NCBI GenBank assembly: GCA_002401565.1
Contig: NVTL01000008.1
Span: 45,507 to 52,399, forward strand
Length of the DNA: 6,893 nucleotides
DNA from: Rhodospirillaceae bacterium
GTDB lineage: Bacteria; Pseudomonadota; Alphaproteobacteria; Rhodospirillales; Magnetovibrionaceae
Direction: 5' to 3'
The translations under genes were made by a program, and so were the position numbers. The notes under the pieces were generated by a model that was not told the DNA's origin, made no database searches, and was given only the letters and a program-made list of their open reading frames with translations. Shown here piece by piece: positions 3-6,892 of the stretch (within the stretch, counting starts at the first letter, position 1; every line of letters starts with the position of its first letter).

Positions 3-443
3 CTGCTGAGCCTCCGGTCCTTGGAAAAGAAGATTTCCTTGGTCGTTTCGATCCCGGAAAACATGCCGATTTTGATTGCCGATGAAGTGCGCATAAAACA
101 GATCGTGTTGAACCTACTGACCAACTCCATCAAGTTTACGCCTCCTGAAGGGCATGTCACATTGACTATGAATTTAACGAATCAAGGCGGTATAAAAATT
201 AGCGTCAAAGATGATGGCGTAGGCATTGCGCCGGGTGATTTGGCTAAAATTCTTGAACCTTTTGGTCAGGCTAACGATACCAGTTCGCTCTCGTGTGAAG
301 GTGTAGGTTTGGGCTTATATCTGGTAAAAATATTTGCAGAAATGCATGATGGACATATCGAGGTCGTCAGCGACTTGGGAATCGGAACCCTTGTATCCGT
401 AACCTTCCCGCCAGAGCGGAGCCATCGCGCGGATGTTCAGTAA
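3..443 (+). CDS. Sensor histidine kinase, C-terminal ATPase domain (5' end outside window)
   Basis: The frame is open to the left edge, so 146 residues of the C-terminus are visible; the TTG at 21 is an internal codon and not a start. Everything visible is a HATPase_c domain, which binds ATP and phosphorylates the dimerisation-domain histidine, here outside the window. Motifs appear in the family order: N-box NLLTNSIKFT (about 37-46), G1 box DDGVGIA (70-76), F-box PFGQ (86-89), G2 box GVGLGLYLVK (100-109) and a G3-like GIGT (126-129). The protein ends about 11 residues after the last strand, so it has no C-terminal receiver domain. The sequence style resembles PleC/DivJ-like kinases of Alphaproteobacteria. 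Stimulus and partner regulator cannot be told. It lies left of the truncated tRNA-Phe, so it may be carried on an integrated element. The domain call is secure; the mobile-element assignment is inference. Confidence 0.93.
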   Translation: MLSLRSLEKKISLVVSIPENMPILIADEVRIKQIVLNLLTNSIKFTPPEGHVTLTMNLTNQGGIKISVKDDGVGIAPGDLAKILEPFGQANDTSSLSCEGVGLGLYLVKIFAEMHDGHIEVVSDLGIGTLVSVTFPPERSHRADVQ

Positions 444-591
444 AAAAAACCGACAGGGACGATAATGTCGCCTCCTGGCTATTAACGGAAGTTTTCAAAG
501 TGTCAGTATAATGTCTGCTTTTCTACGCATAGCGGAAGTAAATTTCTGAATTTTCTGCCATTTCTGGTGACTGGCCCGGCCATGTCGAATG

Positions 592-722
592 AAGTTCGGC
601 GAAAATCACCGATATCTCATTGAGAAATATAGTATATTTTTTCTAATTGGTTCGTTTTGCTCGTTTAAGTTCGGCATAGGTTCGAATATAGACCACCCAT
701 CTATGACCACATGAAAATCACC
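592..722 (+). repeat. Short direct repeats near the tRNA-Phe junction
   Basis: AAGTTCGGC occurs at 592-600 and 667-675. GAAAATCACC occurs at 601-610 and 713-722. The two words are contiguous in the first copy and in the same order, separated by 37 bases, in the second. GGTTCG occurs at 649-654 and 679-684, and GACCAC at 691-696 and 705-710. The 7-base core GAAAATC recurs once more in the tRNA fragment at 771-777. Clustered short repeats beside an attachment core could be recombinase or accessory-factor binding sites. They are short enough that chance cannot be excluded. Confidence 0.35.
625..639. repeat. AT-rich 15-base palindrome
   Basis: AAATATA (625-631) and TATATTT (633-639) form a perfect inverted repeat around a single G at 632. 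Ts continue to 642. With only A-T pairs and a one-base centre it is a poor RNA hairpin, so a DNA-binding dyad (operator or architectural protein site) is more plausible than a terminator. No adjacent gene start shows what it would control. Confidence 0.25.
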
Positions 723-765
723 TTTACTTTATTACTCTTAAAGTCTAGATATCAACCCATCTTTT

Positions 766-813
766 GGATTGAAAATCCGCGTGTCGGTGGTTCAAATCCG
801 CCCCCGGGCACCA
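766..813 (+). other. 3' half of tRNA-Phe(GAA): probable attachment-site scar
   Basis: The sequence reads as the 3' half of a bacterial tRNA-Phe. Visible parts are the last three bases of the 5' anticodon strand (766-768), loop TTGAAAA with anticodon GAA (769-775), 3' anticodon strand TCCGC (776-780), variable loop GTGTC (781-785), T-stem GGTGG/CCGCC (786-790, 798-802) around loop TTCAAAT, acceptor strand CCCGGGC (803-809), discriminator A (810) and encoded CCA (811-813). Upstream there is no GCCCGGG acceptor strand in position and no D-arm, and pairing of the anticodon stem decays at 764-765. The gene is therefore cut in its anticodon stem-loop, a known crossover point for tyrosine recombinases that integrate into tRNA genes. 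The retained terminator just downstream suggests that the right side is the original chromosomal flank. It cannot make a functional tRNA. A split or intron-containing tRNA is much less likely. Confidence 0.85.
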
Positions 814-819
814 TTATTC

Positions 820-852
820 AAAAGGCCTCGGCAGAGATGCTGGGGCTTTTTT
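820..852 (+). terminator. Rho-independent terminator of the former tRNA-Phe gene
   Basis: A hairpin begins six bases after the tRNA CCA end. Its arms (820-833 and 838-850) pair through AAAAG/CTTTT and CCTCGGCA/TGCTGGGG, with one bulged G at 825 and two G-T pairs. They close on a GAGA tetraloop (834-837, GNRA type). The descending arm ends in six Ts (847-852). Spacing and orientation fit termination of the tRNA transcript. In its present setting it would stop readthrough from the left before the OsmC-YcaO gene. Confidence 0.75.
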
Positions 853-1028: not shown

Positions 1029-3218
1029 ATGGAAATCACTGTAAATTTTTTGGACAAACTTCGCCTTGAGGCTAAGTTTGATGATTTTACGATCACGGCC
1101 GATCAGCCTATTCGGTATAAGGGCGATGGAACGGCGCCCAGTCCTTTTGATTATTTTTTAGCCTCTTCCGCCCTGTGCGCCGCCTATTTTGTTAAGCTTT
1201 ATTGTGTGTCGCGGGACATCCCAACAGATGACATTCGGGTGTCGCAAAACAATATTGTTGATCCCCAAAACAGATATAATCAAACCTTTAAAATTCAAGT
1301 CGAATTGCCGTCCAGCATTTCAGAACGTGATCGGCTGGGCATTTTAAGGTCGGCTGATCGCTGTACGGTGAAAAAAGTTGTTCAACAAAACCCTGAATTT
1401 AAAATTGATGCTGTACAAGATTTGGATGATGCATCGTTACTGCAAGCGTTTGAGGGCGACAGCACGACGATGATCGAGGGTAAAGACCTGCCTTTGGAAC
1501 AAACGATTGCGAATATGACGTCGATGCTATCGGATATTGGCCTTAAAATTGAAATTGCGGCGTGGCGTAATATTGTGCCAAATGTATGGTCGCTTCATCT
1601 TCGCGAGGCTGCGTCCCCTATGTGTTTTACCAACGGCAAAGGGGCGTCGAAGGAAAGCGCTCTTTGTTCGGCTTTGGGTGAATATATTGAGCGGATGAGC
1701 TGTAATTTCTTCTATAACGATTATTATTTTGGGGAAGAAATCGCGAACAGCAAGTTTGTCCATTACCCCAATGAAAAATGGTTTAAAGCCGGGATAGATG
1801 ATGCTTTGCCAGAAGGGCTGATGGATGAAAAATGCCTGCAACTTTATAATCCAGATGGTGAATTACGGGCGTCTCATTTAATTGATACAAATTCGGGACT
1901 TGTCGAGCGTGGGATTTGTGCTTTGCCCTTTACGCGCAGTTCAGATCAAAAAACGGTCTATTTCCCGTCTAACTTGATCGAAAATATATTTGTTAGCAAT
2001 GGTATGAGTGCCGGCAATAATTTGTATGAAGCCAAGGTACAATGTCTGTCTGAAATATTTGAACGCGCAATCAAACGCCAAATTATCGAAGAAGAAATCA
2101 TTCTGCCCGATGTGCCAAAAGAAATTCTAGCCACATACCCTCATATTTTGGCCGGTATAGAGGAGCTGGAAAATAAAGGCTTCCCTGTTTTGGTTAAGGA
2201 TGCCTCGATGGGGGGGAAGTTCCCTGTCATGTGTGTGACCTTAATGAACCCGAAAACAGGCGGCGTTTTGTCCTCATTCGGGGCGCATCCAAGTTTTGAA
2301 GTGGCATTAGAACGATCCCTCACCGAATTATTACAAGGCCGCAGTTTTGAAGGCTTAAATGACGTGCCGCCCCCGACGTTCAATAGCCACGCGTTGACCG
2401 AGCCGGGTAATTTTGTTGAGCATTTTATTGATTCAACGGGTGTCATATCGTGGAAGTTCTTTAGCACAAAACATGATTATGAATTTTGCGCTTGGGATTT
2501 CAGCGGCACGACGGAGCAAGAAAATGAACGCCTGATGAGTATTTTAGCAGACCTTGGAAAAGAGGTTTATGTGGCAACTTATGAAAACTTTGGGGCCGCA
2601 GCTTGTCGGATGTTGGTGCCAAATTATTCAGAAGTTTACCCAACAGAAGATTTGATTTGGGATAACACCAATAAAGCCCTGATGTTTCGCGAAGACATTT
2701 TAAACATCCATTCCCTAACGGACGAACAGCTTGAAGATTTGCTGGAACGTTTTGAAGAGACGCAACTGGACAATTACACCAAAATTTCAGAATTAATCGG
2801 CATTGCCTTTGATGAAAATACGGTTTGGGGCAAGTTAGATATTGGTGAGCTGAAAATACTCATTCATTTAGCCTTGAACCAATATGAAGACGCGCAAGAG
2901 ATCGTCGCCGATTTTTTAAACTTTAATGATAATACAGTGGACCGTGGTTTGTTTTATCAGGCCATGGGTGCGGTGCTGGACATTACAATTGATGATGAAT
3001 TAGATATCGATGATTATGGGCCAAACCTCAACAGAATGTATGGCATGCAAGTCATGGAAAATGTGGTGGGGTCTGTGACGGGGGATGTGAAGTTTTATGG
3101 CTTAACAAAGACCAGCCTGAAACTTGAAGGCTTAGACAAACATCTGCAATTGATCGAAAGCTACAAAAAACTACATAAGGCGCGGGGCTTACAGAGTGGA
3201 AAAGTGACTAACCGTTAA
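1029..3218 (+). CDS. ycaO: OsmC-YcaO fusion protein, YcaO-type ATP-binding enzyme
   Basis: This is a 729-residue protein in the family that fuses an OsmC-like domain to YcaO. Residues about 1-125 are OsmC-like and contain two candidate redox cysteines: C50 in SSALCAAYF and C112 in ADRCTVKK. Residues about 155-450 match E. coli YcaO closely. The ATP-site motifs are GEYIER (E218, E221, R222), Q338 with SEIFER (E342, E345, R346), and LLQGR (R438). The remaining C-terminus is helical, as in E. coli YcaO. It lacks the PxPxP tail of azoline-forming YcaOs, and no cyclodehydratase partner, TfuA or precursor peptide is nearby. E. coli YcaO has been linked genetically to RimO-dependent methylthiolation of ribosomal protein S12, so a similar role is the best guess. 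ATG 1029 is chosen because the conserved family N-terminus (MEITVNFLDKLRLEAKF) starts there; the Shine-Dalgarno sequence is weak (GGA at 1014). In-frame TTG 990 adds non-conserved residues. The gene is noticeably more AT-rich than the genes to its right. Confidence 0.95.
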   Translation: MEITVNFLDKLRLEAKFDDFTITADQPIRYKGDGTAPSPFDYFLASSALCAAYFVKLYCVSRDIPTDDIRVSQNNIVDPQNRYNQTFKIQVELPSSISERDRLGILRSADRCTVKKVVQQNPEFKIDAVQDLDDASLLQAFEGDSTTMIEGKDLPLEQTIANMTSMLSDIGLKIEIAAWRNIVPNVWSLHLREAASPMCFTNGKGASKESALCSALGEYIERMSCNFFYNDYYFGEEIANSKFVHYPNEKWFKAGIDDALPEGLMDEKCLQLYNPDGELRASHLIDTNSGLVERGICALPFTRSSDQKTVYFPSNLIENIFVSNGMSAGNNLYEAKVQCLSEIFERAIKRQIIEEEIILPDVPKEILATYPHILAGIEELENKGFPVLVKDASMGGKFPVMCVTLMNPKTGGVLSSFGAHPSFEVALERSLTELLQGRSFEGLNDVPPPTFNSHALTEPGNFVEHFIDSTGVISWKFFSTKHDYEFCAWDFSGTTEQENERLMSILADLGKEVYVATYENFGAAACRMLVPNYSEVYPTEDLIWDNTNKALMFREDILNIHSLTDEQLEDLLERFEETQLDNYTKISELIGIAFDENTVWGKLDIGELKILIHLALNQYEDAQEIVADFLNFNDNTVDRGLFYQAMGAVLDITIDDELDIDDYGPNLNRMYGMQVMENVVGSVTGDVKFYGLTKTSLKLEGLDKHLQLIESYKKLHKARGLQSGKVTNR

Positions 3219-3286: not shown

Positions 3287-4480
3287 TCATTCCGCGCGTA
3301 AAGTTTCTATGGGATCTAAGCGCGCGGCCGACGCTGCGGGGTAGGCTCCGAAGAATAGTCCAACCCCTGCGGAAATCACGGCACCAAGGGGCAGAGCTAA
3401 CGAGGACGGGGTGAAGTCCCAGCCCGAAAAATCTGCATAGATGTAGGCCGCTAGCATGCCCAAAACGGTCCCGCATATTCCCCCGGTTAAAGACAAGAGC
3501 GCGGCTTCCATCAGGAACATAATGCGGATGTGACTGCGCCGCGCGCCCAAGGCCATGCGCAATCCGATTTCACGTCGTCGTTCCGCAACATTCATCAACA
3601 TCACATTCATCACGCCGACGCCACCGACTAAAAGAGAAATAGCACCAATCGCCGCCAGCAATCCCGCCATGATAGAGGCTTGCTTTTGCATGCCTTCGAT
3701 CAATTGGCGTGCGCTTCGTATCTGCACGCGCTGCCCACCATGCAGGTCGCGCAATCTTTCCCCTAATATTTCGGTGGCAAGAATGGGGTCGCTGTCATCA
3801 GCGGCGGCGGCCAAAATAGTTGAGCTTCCCGTTTGTGTGGCCACGCGACGCATGGAGGCTTCGGGGATGATAACGCCCTTGTTTACATCAAAGGGCAACA
3901 GCGGATTATGAGTGGTTTCGGCCAATATGCCGATGACCGTGAACAAATAATTACCGAGACGAATGCGGTCGCCGGGATGTAAAGGGGTGGCGCTGATTTT
4001 GCGTGAAGCGGCTATGGCTGAACCAATAACGGCATAGGTTTCTTCTTTGTCGAATGCGGACAGGAAACGTCCTTCGACGGTGCGAAGACGGATCACGTCT
4101 TTAAGCGATTGGGTCGCACCGATGATACTGCTCTGCATACCCTGCCCACGCCCCAAACGTTTGCCCGTGATGGAAAGTGGGGCGATTTTACGAATTTGGG
4201 GAAGATCTTTTGCGAGGTCTTCAATGGCTGAGGCCGAAGGCCGAGCCCCCTTCATCTGACCTAAAAAGGCCTGAGCAACGATCAGATCCGTGCCCATGGA
4301 TTTGAACTGACGGATCGATTCAACTTCGGCATTGTGGCCCACATTTAACATGGCAATGACCGATGCGGTGCCAATAACAATGCCCAGCAACGCCAAAATC
4401 GAACGCTGAGCAACCGCCATTACATTCGCAACGGCTTCGTATGCCAAGAGTACGAACAAATTGGGTGCAGGCGTGCTCAT
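3287..4480 (-). CDS. MacB/FtsX-type ABC transporter permease
   Basis: This 397-residue inner-membrane protein has the MacB architecture. A cytoplasmic N-terminus leads into TM1 (about 27-47), followed by a large periplasmic domain (about 48-268), TM2 (270-296), TM3 (322-348) and TM4 (362-382). The cytoplasmic loop after TM2 carries the family signature NVAERRREIGLRMALGAR (297-314), and the C-terminus ends in the typical DPIETLR. Members of this class transmit ATPase-driven motion to periplasmic partners and do not move substrate through a membrane channel (MacB, LolCE, FtsX). Its ATG overlaps the stop of the ATPase gene as ATGA (4477-4480), so the two are translationally coupled and surely form one transporter. 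No MacA-like adaptor is visible on either side. Substrate is unknown; the upstream chaperone and the two unknown proteins are the natural suspects. The gene converges on the OsmC-YcaO gene across 68 bases. Confidence 0.93.
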   Translation of the reverse strand: MSTPAPNLFVLLAYEAVANVMAVAQRSILALLGIVIGTASVIAMLNVGHNAEVESIRQFKSMGTDLIVAQAFLGQMKGARPSASAIEDLAKDLPQIRKIAPLSITGKRLGRGQGMQSSIIGATQSLKDVIRLRTVEGRFLSAFDKEETYAVIGSAIAASRKISATPLHPGDRIRLGNYLFTVIGILAETTHNPLLPFDVNKGVIIPEASMRRVATQTGSSTILAAAADDSDPILATEILGERLRDLHGGQRVQIRSARQLIEGMQKQASIMAGLLAAIGAISLLVGGVGVMNVMLMNVAERRREIGLRMALGARRSHIRIMFLMEAALLSLTGGICGTVLGMLAAYIYADFSGWDFTPSSLALPLGAVISAGVGLFFGAYPAASAARLDPIETLRAE

Positions 4481-5155: not shown

Positions 5156-6031
5156 TTATTTTTTTAACGGCAACAAGGGTTTCGTTCCACCGGGCATTTT
5201 ATCCCCTGGCTTAAAACCTTTTGCCATTTGTTTAAGGCCCACAGTGGGGAACTCGCTCACTGTTCCGTCACCGCATTGCGCAGGGTCTGGAACAATGTCG
5301 GTTGCCCAAATTTCATCGCTTTCCAAGACACGGGCCGCAATGGTAATGGTGCGACTAGCCTGACAGTCTTCGCCAGACAAAGCCGCTTTAAAGGTCAGCA
5401 ACCCATTGGCCAATACGTACCAACCTTGTCTTTGGATGCGAAAAACTTGTTTACCGGATTGATCTTTTCCGGTGACCGAGGCTTCACCAACATAGGTATG
5501 TTCTGTCCCACTGTTAAAAACGGTGAAGTCAATTTTTCCATTGGTGACAGGGGTGGTTGTTAGGCGACCGACATGGATTGTTTCCAACGGTTTATAAAAC
5601 ACGGGAAGTGTAAAAGACGCAATAACCTGAACATCCTTTTCACTTTCTTCACGTTTGCGGTCACCACGTTCGACAATACGAAGGCGATAAACTTTTTCCG
5701 CATGACCAGCTTGGGGGGCGGGCACCAAAGCCGTAACCCGTATTTGGGCACTGCCATGGGCGGGAATGTCCAAACTGGCGGGCTCGACCCGAATACCTTC
5801 TGTGGGGGGTAACAGGACCTTGCCATCGTCTTCTTGCTCCCACCCCAACGCTTCAATATCGTACCCCGCCACAACATCTCGGTCATTGGTGATGGTTAAT
5901 ACACCCTCGCGATTGTCCGCTGTTAGGGTGACAAGCGGCGGGTTAATCCCCGTTCCCGCTTGGGCAGAAGGAAACAGTCCTAAGAGGCCAAAGAGCATAG
6001 CTGCGAAGGTGGAAAAGAGGCGTTTGTTCAT
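5156..6031 (-). CDS. Secreted PapD-like (pilus-type) periplasmic chaperone
   Basis: The 291-residue protein begins with a clear signal peptide: MNKR, then a hydrophobic stretch from about 5 to 20, and likely cleavage after SAQA (residue 25). Residues about 29-122 follow the N-terminal immunoglobulin-like domain of PapD/FimC chaperones: VTLT..., VLTITNDRD, EALGWEQ, a VEPASLDIPAHGSAQIRV strand pair, and YRLRIVE. Next comes the hallmark TLPVFYKP (141-148). A second beta-rich region (about 150-245) would be the C-terminal domain. It is followed by an unusual tail with C253 (possible disulfide partner of C223) and a Lys/Gly/Pro-rich end. Such chaperones complete the fold of pilin subunits by donor-strand complementation, but no usher or pilin is in view. 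ATG 6031 is chosen for the signal peptide and the AGGACGG ribosome site; the longer open frame to 6205 overlaps the upstream gene and is not coding. The substrate is unknown. Confidence 0.85.
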   Translation of the reverse strand: MNKRLFSTFAAMLFGLLGLFPSAQAGTGINPPLVTLTADNREGVLTITNDRDVVAGYDIEALGWEQEDDGKVLLPPTEGIRVEPASLDIPAHGSAQIRVTALVPAPQAGHAEKVYRLRIVERGDRKREESEKDVQVIASFTLPVFYKPLETIHVGRLTTTPVTNGKIDFTVFNSGTEHTYVGEASVTGKDQSGKQVFRIQRQGWYVLANGLLTFKAALSGEDCQASRTITIAARVLESDEIWATDIVPDPAQCGDGTVSEFPTVGLKQMAKGFKPGDKMPGGTKPLLPLKK

Positions 6032-6039
6032 ACAGATAT

Positions 6040-6046
6040 CCGTCCT
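6040..6046 (-). promoter_or_regulatory. Ribosome binding site of the chaperone gene
   Basis: On the minus strand AGGACGG ends eight bases before the ATG at 6031 and directly follows the TAA of the upstream gene (6048-6050). This fixes the chaperone start at 6031 and suggests translational coupling of the two genes. Confidence 0.7.
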
Positions 6047-6047
6047 A

Positions 6048-6746
6048 TTATGTTGTTTCGACTGGATCAACGTCTTTCGCAGAAGCTGAGGCAGATTTTT
6101 CTTGGCTGATGAGGTTTTGTAGATAATCCGATCGGGCTTGGTTGTAGTCGGAATATGACGGCCCGCCGGCCCGCCTGGACGCAGACCATTCCATCGTATC
6201 ATCATGGCTCTTCGGCAGATTGGCGTTGAATTCGAGCAAGTTGAAATAAATTTCGGCAGGCGGCAGGTCCTGTGCTGTCAGATTTTCGTAATATGCGGTG
6301 CGTTGTTGTTGGACAGCTTCTATTCCTTCCCTTTGTGACCTTGCGGCTGCGACAGCACGACTGTTTGTCGGGATTTCTTTAACAAAGTACATCTCACCAG
6401 AGGTTCCAAATAACTTAGCTTGGCTCGCTGCATATACCGGATCATTGGCAATGTCTTCAAGATGATGACGTTCGCCTATGGACAAAGGTCCGTCGTATTC
6501 TTCTGTGTTGGCATTCGATACACCGATCTCTTGTGCCTCAGCAATCAATTGCCCCACCACTTCCTTCGATAGGTTGCTGCCTGTGACCCCGGTCACGGGT
6601 GCGGCTTTTGCCGTGTTGGCGGTATCCGTTTCACCGTTTTGAGCCGGAGCCGGTGTTGAGGCCCATTCGCCACCTTTGTTCTCAGCACCATGTGCCGCTC
6701 GCGTAAATAGGGGGGATGTATAGGCTGAACTGTTTTCGACTTGCAT
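6048..6746 (-). CDS. Unrecognised 232-residue protein, tandem paralogue of the upstream gene
   Basis: I do not recognise a family. The protein has no signal peptide or membrane segment. Residues about 10-60 are low-complexity (Ala, Thr, Gly, Pro, Asn) and probably disordered. The rest is polar and mostly helical, with a charged Gln/Arg/Ala-rich stretch (about 130-155) that could form a short coiled coil. There are no cysteines. The C-terminus contains DYNQARSDYLQNLISQ (about 200-215), which matches ESFQASHDHLQNLIDQ near the end of the truncated upstream gene, so the two are probably duplicated relatives. ATG 6746 is preferred because AGGA lies eight bases upstream; ATG 6752 is in frame but only two bases from AGGA, although it overlaps the preceding stop as TAATG. 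It sits 16 bases before the chaperone gene in the same operon, so it may be a partner or client, but that is inference. A cytosolic role or export by a signal-less route cannot be separated. Confidence 0.8.
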   Translation of the reverse strand: MQVENSSAYTSPLFTRAAHGAENKGGEWASTPAPAQNGETDTANTAKAAPVTGVTGSNLSKEVVGQLIAEAQEIGVSNANTEEYDGPLSIGERHHLEDIANDPVYAASQAKLFGTSGEMYFVKEIPTNSRAVAAARSQREGIEAVQQQRTAYYENLTAQDLPPAEIYFNLLEFNANLPKSHDDTMEWSASRRAGGPSYSDYNQARSDYLQNLISQEKSASASAKDVDPVETT

Positions 6747-6751
6747 GATCA

Positions 6752-6892
6752 TTATCCTGTGGATTGTTCAGAAGATGTCGCTGTATCGCTCTGATCAATA
6801 AGGTTTTGCAGGTGGTCGTGAGAAGCTTGAAAGGATTCAACAGTACGCGTTGACTTATCAAAACCAATACTCAACGAATCCCAATAATCTTG
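6752..6892 (-). CDS. C-terminal end of an unrecognised gene, cut by the window edge
   Basis: From the right edge a minus-strand frame is open for 46 codons and stops with TAA at 6752-6754. It begins QDYWDSLSIGFDKS and ends in a polar Ser/Thr tail. Three things support coding: the stop overlaps or abuts the next gene's start, a ribosome site lies in its last codons, and the 16-residue stretch ESFQASHDHLQNLIDQ matches the C-terminus of the next gene, with nine identities by eye. It is therefore probably a paralogue of that gene and an earlier member of the same operon. Its N-terminus, length and any domains are outside the window. A faint resemblance to helical ends of flagellar hook-associated proteins is too weak to use. 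Confidence 0.7.
   Translation of the reverse strand, partial: QDYWDSLSIGFDKSTRTVESFQASHDHLQNLIDQSDTATSSEQSTG
6755..6758 (-). promoter_or_regulatory. Ribosome binding site deciding the start at 6746
   Basis: Minus-strand AGGA lies eight bases before the ATG at 6746 and only two bases before the in-frame ATG at 6752. Spacing therefore favours 6746. It is embedded in the last codons of the upstream gene, so the two genes are closely coupled. Confidence 0.55.

What the first reader, a model, noticed from the sequence alone, without database searches (positions are those of the whole stretch)
766..813. Truncated tRNA-Phe marks the end of an integrated element
A clean 3' half of tRNA-Phe(GAA), broken in the anticodon stem-loop and followed by its terminator, stands alone without a 5' half. 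Tyrosine-recombinase islands that use tRNA genes leave this pattern: they restore a full tRNA at one end and leave a 3' fragment at the other. The kinase side would be island and the OsmC-YcaO side the original chromosome.
Basis: partly seen in the sequence, partly recalled or inferred. Interest (0 to 1): 0.75.

Follow-up and report, generated by a model that had tools for sequence, protein, structure and literature searches.

The report
Stacked gene cargoes at one tRNA
In a relative of the bacterium Magnetovibrio, an intact tRNA gene is followed by a row of gene cargoes, each closed by another copy of the tRNA's 3' half; the cargoes were likely inserted one after another by a recombinase that the row itself does not encode.

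Summary
Bases 766-813 equal the last 48 bases of an intact tRNA-Phe(GAA) lying 6.9 kb to the left on the same contig (48/48). The single-island reading is only partly right. The fragment is the middle of three tRNA-Phe 3' copies behind that gene (C11:41144, 46272, 57694), so the window shows a junction between two cargo units (5.1 and 11.4 kb), not island against chromosome. OsmC-YcaO is also cargo: it is in only 3 of 18 family genomes, each time beside tRNA-Phe fragments. All three orphan copies follow a related right arm absent from the intact gene; it recurs in three same-genus genomes and, at a tRNA-Met fragment, in another family. No tyrosine recombinase was found on the contig. Best reading: tandem accretion at one tRNA attachment site by a recombinase lost or acting in trans, like the 'additive' islands of marine bacteria. 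Beyond the window, the array ends in a gene pair (an unknown 134-aa protein, an RRM protein). The 134-aa gene lies 79-100 bp behind tRNA-Phe, -Met or -Ser 3' ends at 14 of 21 loci: the most novel lead.

The parts
3..443 (+). C-terminal part of a sensor histidine kinase (713-aa ORF that starts outside the window), last cargo gene of unit E2
   Evidence: HATPase_c PF02518 E=1.8e-27; full ORF at 18809-20950 of the joined stretch C11:25000-58892
465..765 (+). Right end of unit E2, without a listed gene; shared with the right end of E1 (pieces at window 476-517 at 95%, 537-609 at 93%, 713-860 at 83%, the last including the fragment and hairpin) and with right ends in G002, G003 and G004
   Evidence: self-BLAST of the contig stretch; BLAST against relatives, 75-82%
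713..765 (+). Right arm next to the fragment (TTTACTTT..TTACTCTTA..TCTTTT), absent from the intact tRNA gene; a related arm precedes all three orphan copies
   Evidence: same type at a tRNA-Met fragment in G561, local score 40, 0 of 2000 shuffles as high
766..813 (+). 3' 48 nt of tRNA-Phe(GAA) without its 5' part: junction of units E2 and E3
   Evidence: 48/48 identical to the intact gene at C11:39401-39476
820..851 (+). Intrinsic-terminator-like hairpin with U run behind the tRNA 3' half
   Evidence: RNA fold of 766-858, z -2.8; homologous sequences follow the intact gene and the other copies; not listed by the pattern scan
1029..3218 (+). OsmC-YcaO fusion gene, first cargo gene of unit E3
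   Evidence: NCBIfam TIGR03549 1371 bits against cut-off 900; over cut-off in 3 of 18 family genomes only
3287..4480 (-). MacB-like ABC permease (E3 cargo)
   Evidence: PF12704 and PF02687
4477..5148 (-). ABC ATPase of the MacB/LolD type (E3 cargo)
   Evidence: PF00005; best NCBIfam hits MacB and LolD, both below cut-off
5156..6205 (-). Open reading frame, weak PapD-N-like match below Pfam's cut-off (E3 cargo)
   Evidence: PF00345 E=2.6e-4, 21.4 bits against 23
6048..6752 (-). Protein of unknown function (E3 cargo), N-terminal part repeated in the next gene to the right
   Evidence: no Pfam or NCBIfam match at E<=0.001; 234-bp repeat at 96%

Best explanation
The fragment is the second of three tRNA-Phe 3' copies that follow an intact tRNA-Phe gene on one contig, and it is the junction between two cargo units that were likely inserted one after another into the tRNA's anticodon loop by a site-specific recombinase that the array does not encode. 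Each unit begins with a tRNA 3' half and hairpin and ends with a related right arm (shown). Under the model (inferred), an incoming circle recombines at the tRNA, its own 3' half restores the gene, and the older 3' half with everything behind it is pushed right, so units pile up in order of arrival. Lengths from core to core are 1.7 kb (E1), 5.1 kb (E2) and 11.4 kb (E3), followed by what looks like a fourth, decayed unit of about 0.9 kb that carries the 134-aa protein gene (F7) and an RRM gene. The recombinase is probably of the tyrosine type and was lost or acts in trans (inferred). The units now look settled rather than active, because the window's junction is shared with G002 and partly eroded there.
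For: Intact tRNA-Phe plus three orphan 3' copies on the same strand. A related right arm before all orphan copies and absent from the intact gene. The same arm at tRNA-Phe fragments in G002, G003 and G004 and at a tRNA-Met fragment in G561. The distal copy has drifted most (47, 48 and 40 of 48 identical from left to right, ungapped). Genes left of the tRNA are shared with relatives (ORF family F0, next to the tRNA, in 13 loci; tRNA-Thr 7-9 kb upstream in 10 of 22 scanned loci), while genes to the right differ. OsmC-YcaO is accessory. Relatives have integrase-like ORFs beside or behind tRNA-Phe (G033, G061, G092, and a 75-aa piece in the family relative G010), so the site is used by such enzymes. 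The same-genus, 99% complete G001 has an intact tRNA-Phe and, 7.3 kb behind it, a partial copy with this hairpin (92% over 79 bp).
Against: No recombinase gene was found on the contig, so its type is not shown. The contig is from a draft assembly (113 contigs, 86% complete), and it stops 0.3 kb after the last remnant. No relative with a clean empty site and shared right flank was found. The sizes assume that each arm plus copy is an element end; later rearrangement could have merged units (E3 in G000 holds exporter genes that G002 and G004 lack between ycaO and the fragment). Right-arm similarity could partly reflect duplication of one end rather than separate insertions. If units of one kind change target tRNA, the simple model does not explain how each gets a matching 3' half.
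Confidence: 0.77

Rival explanations
1. A single tyrosine-recombinase island ends at 813, with the kinase side inserted and the OsmC-YcaO side original chromosome.
For: Intact tRNA-Phe to the left with an exact 48-nt match.
Against: Two other orphan copies, one to the left and one to the right; no integrase found on the contig; OsmC-YcaO in 3 of 18 family genomes, each time beside tRNA-Phe fragments.
Confidence: 0.05
2. One ancient end (right arm, tRNA 3' half and hairpin) was copied within the region by duplication or unequal crossing-over, and cargo was later swapped between the copies by homologous recombination, without repeated site-specific insertion.
For: Right ends of E1 and E2 share three pieces of 42, 74 and 151 bp at 95, 93 and 83%; hairpin sequences after the copies are homologous.
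Against: The same right arm type occurs at a tRNA-Met fragment in another family; tRNA-Phe fragments with unrelated arms occur in other genera (G015, G092, G078), which points to repeated insertion at this site.
Confidence: 0.12
3. The orphan tRNA 3' half with its hairpin is kept by selection as a transcription terminator or RNA-processing site between operons, whatever its origin.
For: The hairpin is strong; the fragment in the window is unmutated (48/48).
Against: Other copies decay (third copy in G000, G004, G014), and G002 has lost part of the tRNA half at the same junction while keeping the hairpin, so the tRNA part is not under evident constraint.
Confidence: 0.05

Closest known systems
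Additive flexible genomic islands of marine bacteria (Methylophilaceae fGI-2 in PMC10872708; Ca. Actinomarinales in PMC7771536; Alteromonas in PMC5217437; passages read)
   Same: Cargo of very different length added at a tRNA gene, with repeats of the tRNA end (PMC10872708: repeats of the last 20 bp of tRNA-Lys precede islands of 330 bp to 42 kb; [quoted passage not shown]
   Different: Here the copies are about 48 nt plus hairpin, start in the anticodon stem, and each is preceded by a related right arm that recurs in other genomes and at a second tRNA.
tRNA-targeted genomic islands with a tyrosine integrase and tRNA gene fragments (PMC9897764, passages read; Williams 2002 on sublocation, recalled, not held)
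   Same: Intact tRNA at one end, 3' fragment at the other.
   Different: No integrase found in the array; several fragments in a row.
Tycheposons (first described in Prochlorococcus, recalled; passages on Methylophilaceae in PMC10872708)
   Same: Cargo at tRNA genes, tRNA-Met among them.
   Different: No tyrosine recombinase found; PMC10872708 gives 4-200 kb for tycheposons, E1 is 1.7 kb.
Integron cassette arrays lacking an integrase (CALIN; passage in PMC11389934)
   Same: A row of cargo units without the recombinase gene, which can be mobilised in trans.
   Different: Units here are closed by tRNA 3' halves; attC sites were not searched for.

Membership tests
tRNA-targeted tyrosine-recombinase island | Intact tRNA gene at one end and a matching 3' fragment at the other | tested here: met
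   48/48 match, 6.9 kb apart
tRNA-targeted tyrosine-recombinase island | Tyrosine recombinase gene inside the element | tested here: not met
   16 PF00589 matches in the genome, none on C11; Pfam scans of 16 array ORFs, the kinase only in its last 146 aa, gave no recombinase except an 82-aa rve remnant
tRNA-targeted tyrosine-recombinase island | Empty site in relatives: intact tRNA joined to the flank found behind the fragment | tested here: inconclusive
   tRNA-Phe is intact in relatives, but right flanks differ in those compared; flanks behind the tRNA-Ser and tRNA-Met units matched other genomes only in the first 96 and 39 of 800 bases
tRNA-targeted tyrosine-recombinase island | Circular intermediate with a joined attP | not testable with these tools
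   needs reads or PCR
Additive flexible genomic island | Fixed locus at a tRNA with conserved neighbour genes on one side | tested here: met
   Upstream gene families shared by up to 13 loci; tRNA-Thr upstream in 10 of 22 scanned loci, several of the others being cut by contig ends
Additive flexible genomic island | Several cargo units separated by repeats of the tRNA end | tested here: met
   Three orphan copies plus a remnant in G000; three copies in G002
Additive flexible genomic island | Cargo differs between close relatives | tested here: met
   G000, G002, G003 and G004 differ between or before the copies
Tycheposon | Tyrosine recombinase with the tRNA | tested here: not met
Integron cassette array (CALIN) | attC recombination sites between units | not tested
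   no attC model was run; Rfam found nothing at E<=1 in the window

The most novel reading that the evidence does not exclude
The array's last unit belongs to an undescribed family of very small mobile units, about 0.85-0.9 kb, whose only genes are a conserved 134-aa protein (F7) and an RRM RNA-binding protein. The family anchors itself precisely behind tRNA 3' ends and has changed target among tRNA-Phe, tRNA-Met and tRNA-Ser, perhaps through a shared AATCCGC core in the anticodon arm, with the two proteins taking part in finding or protecting the tRNA target rather than being passive cargo.
Probability: 0.18. Interest if true: 0.8.

Novelty: new variant of a known kind. Interest (0 to 1): 0.52.

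Why it matters
It shows a tRNA gene used as a landing strip for stacked cargoes with no recombinase found in the stack, and gives both unit ends in sequence, so the question of who moves integrase-free islands in marine bacteria becomes testable. The recurring F7-RRM pair behind three different tRNA genes offers a very small, countable marker for such units and a candidate for a new kind of tRNA-anchored mobile unit.

Tried and rejected
Single island with OsmC-YcaO as chromosome: rejected. F7 as plain chromosomal neighbour of tRNA-Phe (my first reading, because F7 follows intact tRNA-Phe in G015 and G017): given up after F7 was found directly behind tRNA-Ser in G008 and tRNA-Met in G061 and G562. 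Phage or plasmid origin of F7: no relative in viral contigs (62 pattern stretches, none confirmed), plasmids or phages. Right-arm pattern in the species collection: 11 stretches, of which 3 are true fragments in this genus, 3 are intact tRNA-Phe of Clostridia, and 5 show no tRNA; both viral stretches show no tRNA. A stricter arm pattern over 317 order genomes hit only G000 (third copy), G003 and G561; it misses the first two copies of G000 and the copies of G002 and G004, which differ by a base or more.

Full report
What is there. The window is G000:C11:45507-52399 of a draft genome with 113 contigs. Bases 766-813 are the last 48 bases of tRNA-Phe(GAA), identical to the intact gene at C11:39401-39476. 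The identity ends exactly at 766: the gene has CAGC before GGATTGAAAATCC, the fragment has CTTTT. ARAGORN and Rfam see no tRNA in the window. A 14-pair hairpin with a U run follows at 820-851; the pattern scan for terminators missed it.

An array, not one island. BLAST of the stretch against its own genome gives the intact gene and two further orphan copies on the same strand, at C11:41144 and 57694, besides the window's at 46272, plus a hairpin remnant at 58557-58608. Agreement with the window's 48 bases is 47, 48 and 40 from left to right in ungapped register, the last lowered by a deletion. From core to core the units measure 1.7, 5.1 and 11.4 kb (positions). By Pfam, E1 carries a 187-aa unknown and an F5/8 type C protein. 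E2 carries a cytochrome c, an rve-domain remnant, a solute-binding protein and the histidine kinase. E3 carries OsmC-YcaO, a MacB-like permease and ABC ATPase, unknowns, an HlyD-type protein and an outer-membrane efflux protein.

Ends of the units. All three orphan copies follow a related arm (TTTACTTT, TTAC, then TCTTTT or a close form) that the intact gene lacks. The right ends of E1 and E2 share pieces of 42, 74 and 151 bp at 95, 93 and 83%, the last including the copy and hairpin. G003, G002 and G004 carry the same right end at 82, 78 and 75%, each running into a tRNA-Phe fragment. A stricter pattern over 317 order genomes hit G000 (third copy only), G003 and G561; in G561 the arm precedes a tRNA-Met fragment. 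Its best local score against six Phe arms was 40, with 0 of 2000 shuffles as high; seven other arms taken as controls scored like their shuffles, the nearest, G542, being matched by 115 of 1000.

OsmC-YcaO (TIGR03549 over cut-off) is in 3 of 18 family genomes: G000, G002 and G004; several of the 18 are incomplete. In all three it lies beside tRNA-Phe fragments. It is accessory cargo, so the OsmC-YcaO side is not the original chromosome. G002 keeps the window's junction with homologous flanks (82% on the left, 90% on the right), but its arm and part of the tRNA half are gone. The junction is therefore older than the split of the two genomes and is eroding. The same-genus G001, 99% complete, has an intact tRNA-Phe and, 7.3 kb behind it, a partial copy with this hairpin, without OsmC-YcaO.

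Recombinase. The genome has 16 PF00589 matches, several beside other tRNAs, but none on C11. In relatives, integrase-like ORFs lie directly behind tRNA-Phe in G033 and G061 (modest E-values, 7e-8 and 4e-7), 2.7 kb behind it in G092, and as a 75-aa piece directly behind it in the family relative G010 (E 9e-6). So the site is used by such enzymes. That a tyrosine recombinase made the array, and that it was lost or acts in trans, is inference.

Mechanism. Shown: repeated tRNA 3' halves with hairpin, a related right arm, shared genes on the left and variable content on the right. Inferred: each incoming circle recombined in the anticodon arm, its own 3' half restored the tRNA, and older units were pushed right. 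The most distal copy is the most decayed, as this order predicts, though three copies are a small sample.

The last unit. Right of the third copy lie a 134-aa gene (F7) and a 78-aa RRM gene (PF00076, E=1.2e-17), then a decayed remnant that I read as this unit's right end (inferred). F7 has 202 relatives at E<=0.001; of the 120 listed, 113 are exactly 134 aa and none has a Pfam domain. It is in 16 of 150 relatives, 20 of 317 order genomes and 2 of 385 class genomes, the own genome counted each time. At 14 of 21 loci examined (the 20 and G433), a tRNA 3' half ends 79-100 bp before F7: Phe at 10, Met at 3, Ser at 1. The tRNA is intact in six of these (G008, G015, G017, G061, G433, G562). At 7 loci (G010, G014, G053, G069, G081, G102, G563) the score is not clearly above background, although G014 and G102 show what look like decayed remnants by eye. 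The RRM gene follows at 14 of 21 loci; G014 is cut by its contig end. In G008 (Ser), G061 (Met) and G078 (Phe) the pair is closed by another tRNA fragment after a similar right end, with lengths of 901, 852 and 859 bp between the repeats. The fragment in G061 is 39 nt at 87%; in G078 both copies are fragments and the right one covers only 24 bases, so G008 (64 nt at 98%) is the cleanest case. An integrase-like frame was found near F7 in 2 of 21 loci, with many stretches cut by contig ends. F7 was not found in phage, plasmid or viral collections. No function could be read from its predicted fold.

Comparison. The array matches the additive flexible genomic islands of marine bacteria, in which cargo of variable length is added at tRNA genes and leaves repeats of the tRNA end (passages of PMC10872708, PMC7771536 and PMC5217437). 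It lacks the recombinase that the Methylophilaceae paper names for tycheposons. In the searches made (one search listed 12 of 28 papers) no title or abstract start in the listings described such an array in Magnetovibrio or an RRM-bearing unit at tRNA genes; the library lacks most subscription journals, and of five papers only passages were read.

Verdict. That is a variant of a known kind. The F7-RRM pair behind three tRNA types is the part that deserves follow-up. On checking against the calls, the confidence of the main reading was lowered from 0.78 to 0.77, for the unexplained matching 3' halves when a unit changes its target tRNA.

Noticed in passing
L042:13799-14517 (C11:57799-58517), outside the window: Conserved 134-aa gene (F7, no Pfam) followed by a 78-aa RRM gene, directly behind a tRNA-Phe 3' fragment; in other genomes F7 sits behind intact or partial tRNA-Phe, tRNA-Met or tRNA-Ser.
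   Followed up: partly
L152 (G008:C17), reverse complement coordinates: tRNA-Ser 786-878, F7 963-1364, Ser fragments at 1724 and 8749: A tRNA-Ser(GCT) gene also carries a row of its own 3' fragments, the first closing a 0.9-kb F7-RRM unit and followed by a different hairpin-like sequence.
   Followed up: partly
L042:7554-9400 (window 6048-6752 and the gene to its right): Two neighbouring unknown proteins of 234 and 380 aa share their N-terminal part (a 234-bp repeat at 96% identity), as if a gene was duplicated and diverged within E3.
   Followed up: no
L041:17492-17740: 82-aa remnant of an rve-domain transposase inside unit E2.
   Followed up: no
L094:10660-12680 (G015) and L102:8119-10061 (G009): A shared gene pair (a 337-aa protein with only a sub-threshold Sel1 match, and a protein with peptidoglycan-binding and Mu-F-like domains, Pfam run on the G015 copy) between tRNA-Phe and a 3' fragment with another right arm: another unit without a recognised integrase at the same site.
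   Followed up: partly
L149:10837-12009 (G033), L150:9578-11128 (G061), L146:8468-9079 (G092), L096:3374-3601 (G010): Integrase-like ORFs, the last a 75-aa piece, beside or behind tRNA-Phe in relatives; in G033 a 3' fragment lies about 26 kb away.
   Followed up: no
L138, L139, L140 (G000 C51, C36, C62): Integrases of about 345 aa lie directly beside tRNA-Met, tRNA-Glu and tRNA-Val in the same genome; those at Met and Glu are 59% identical. They are candidates for a trans-acting enzyme.
   Followed up: partly
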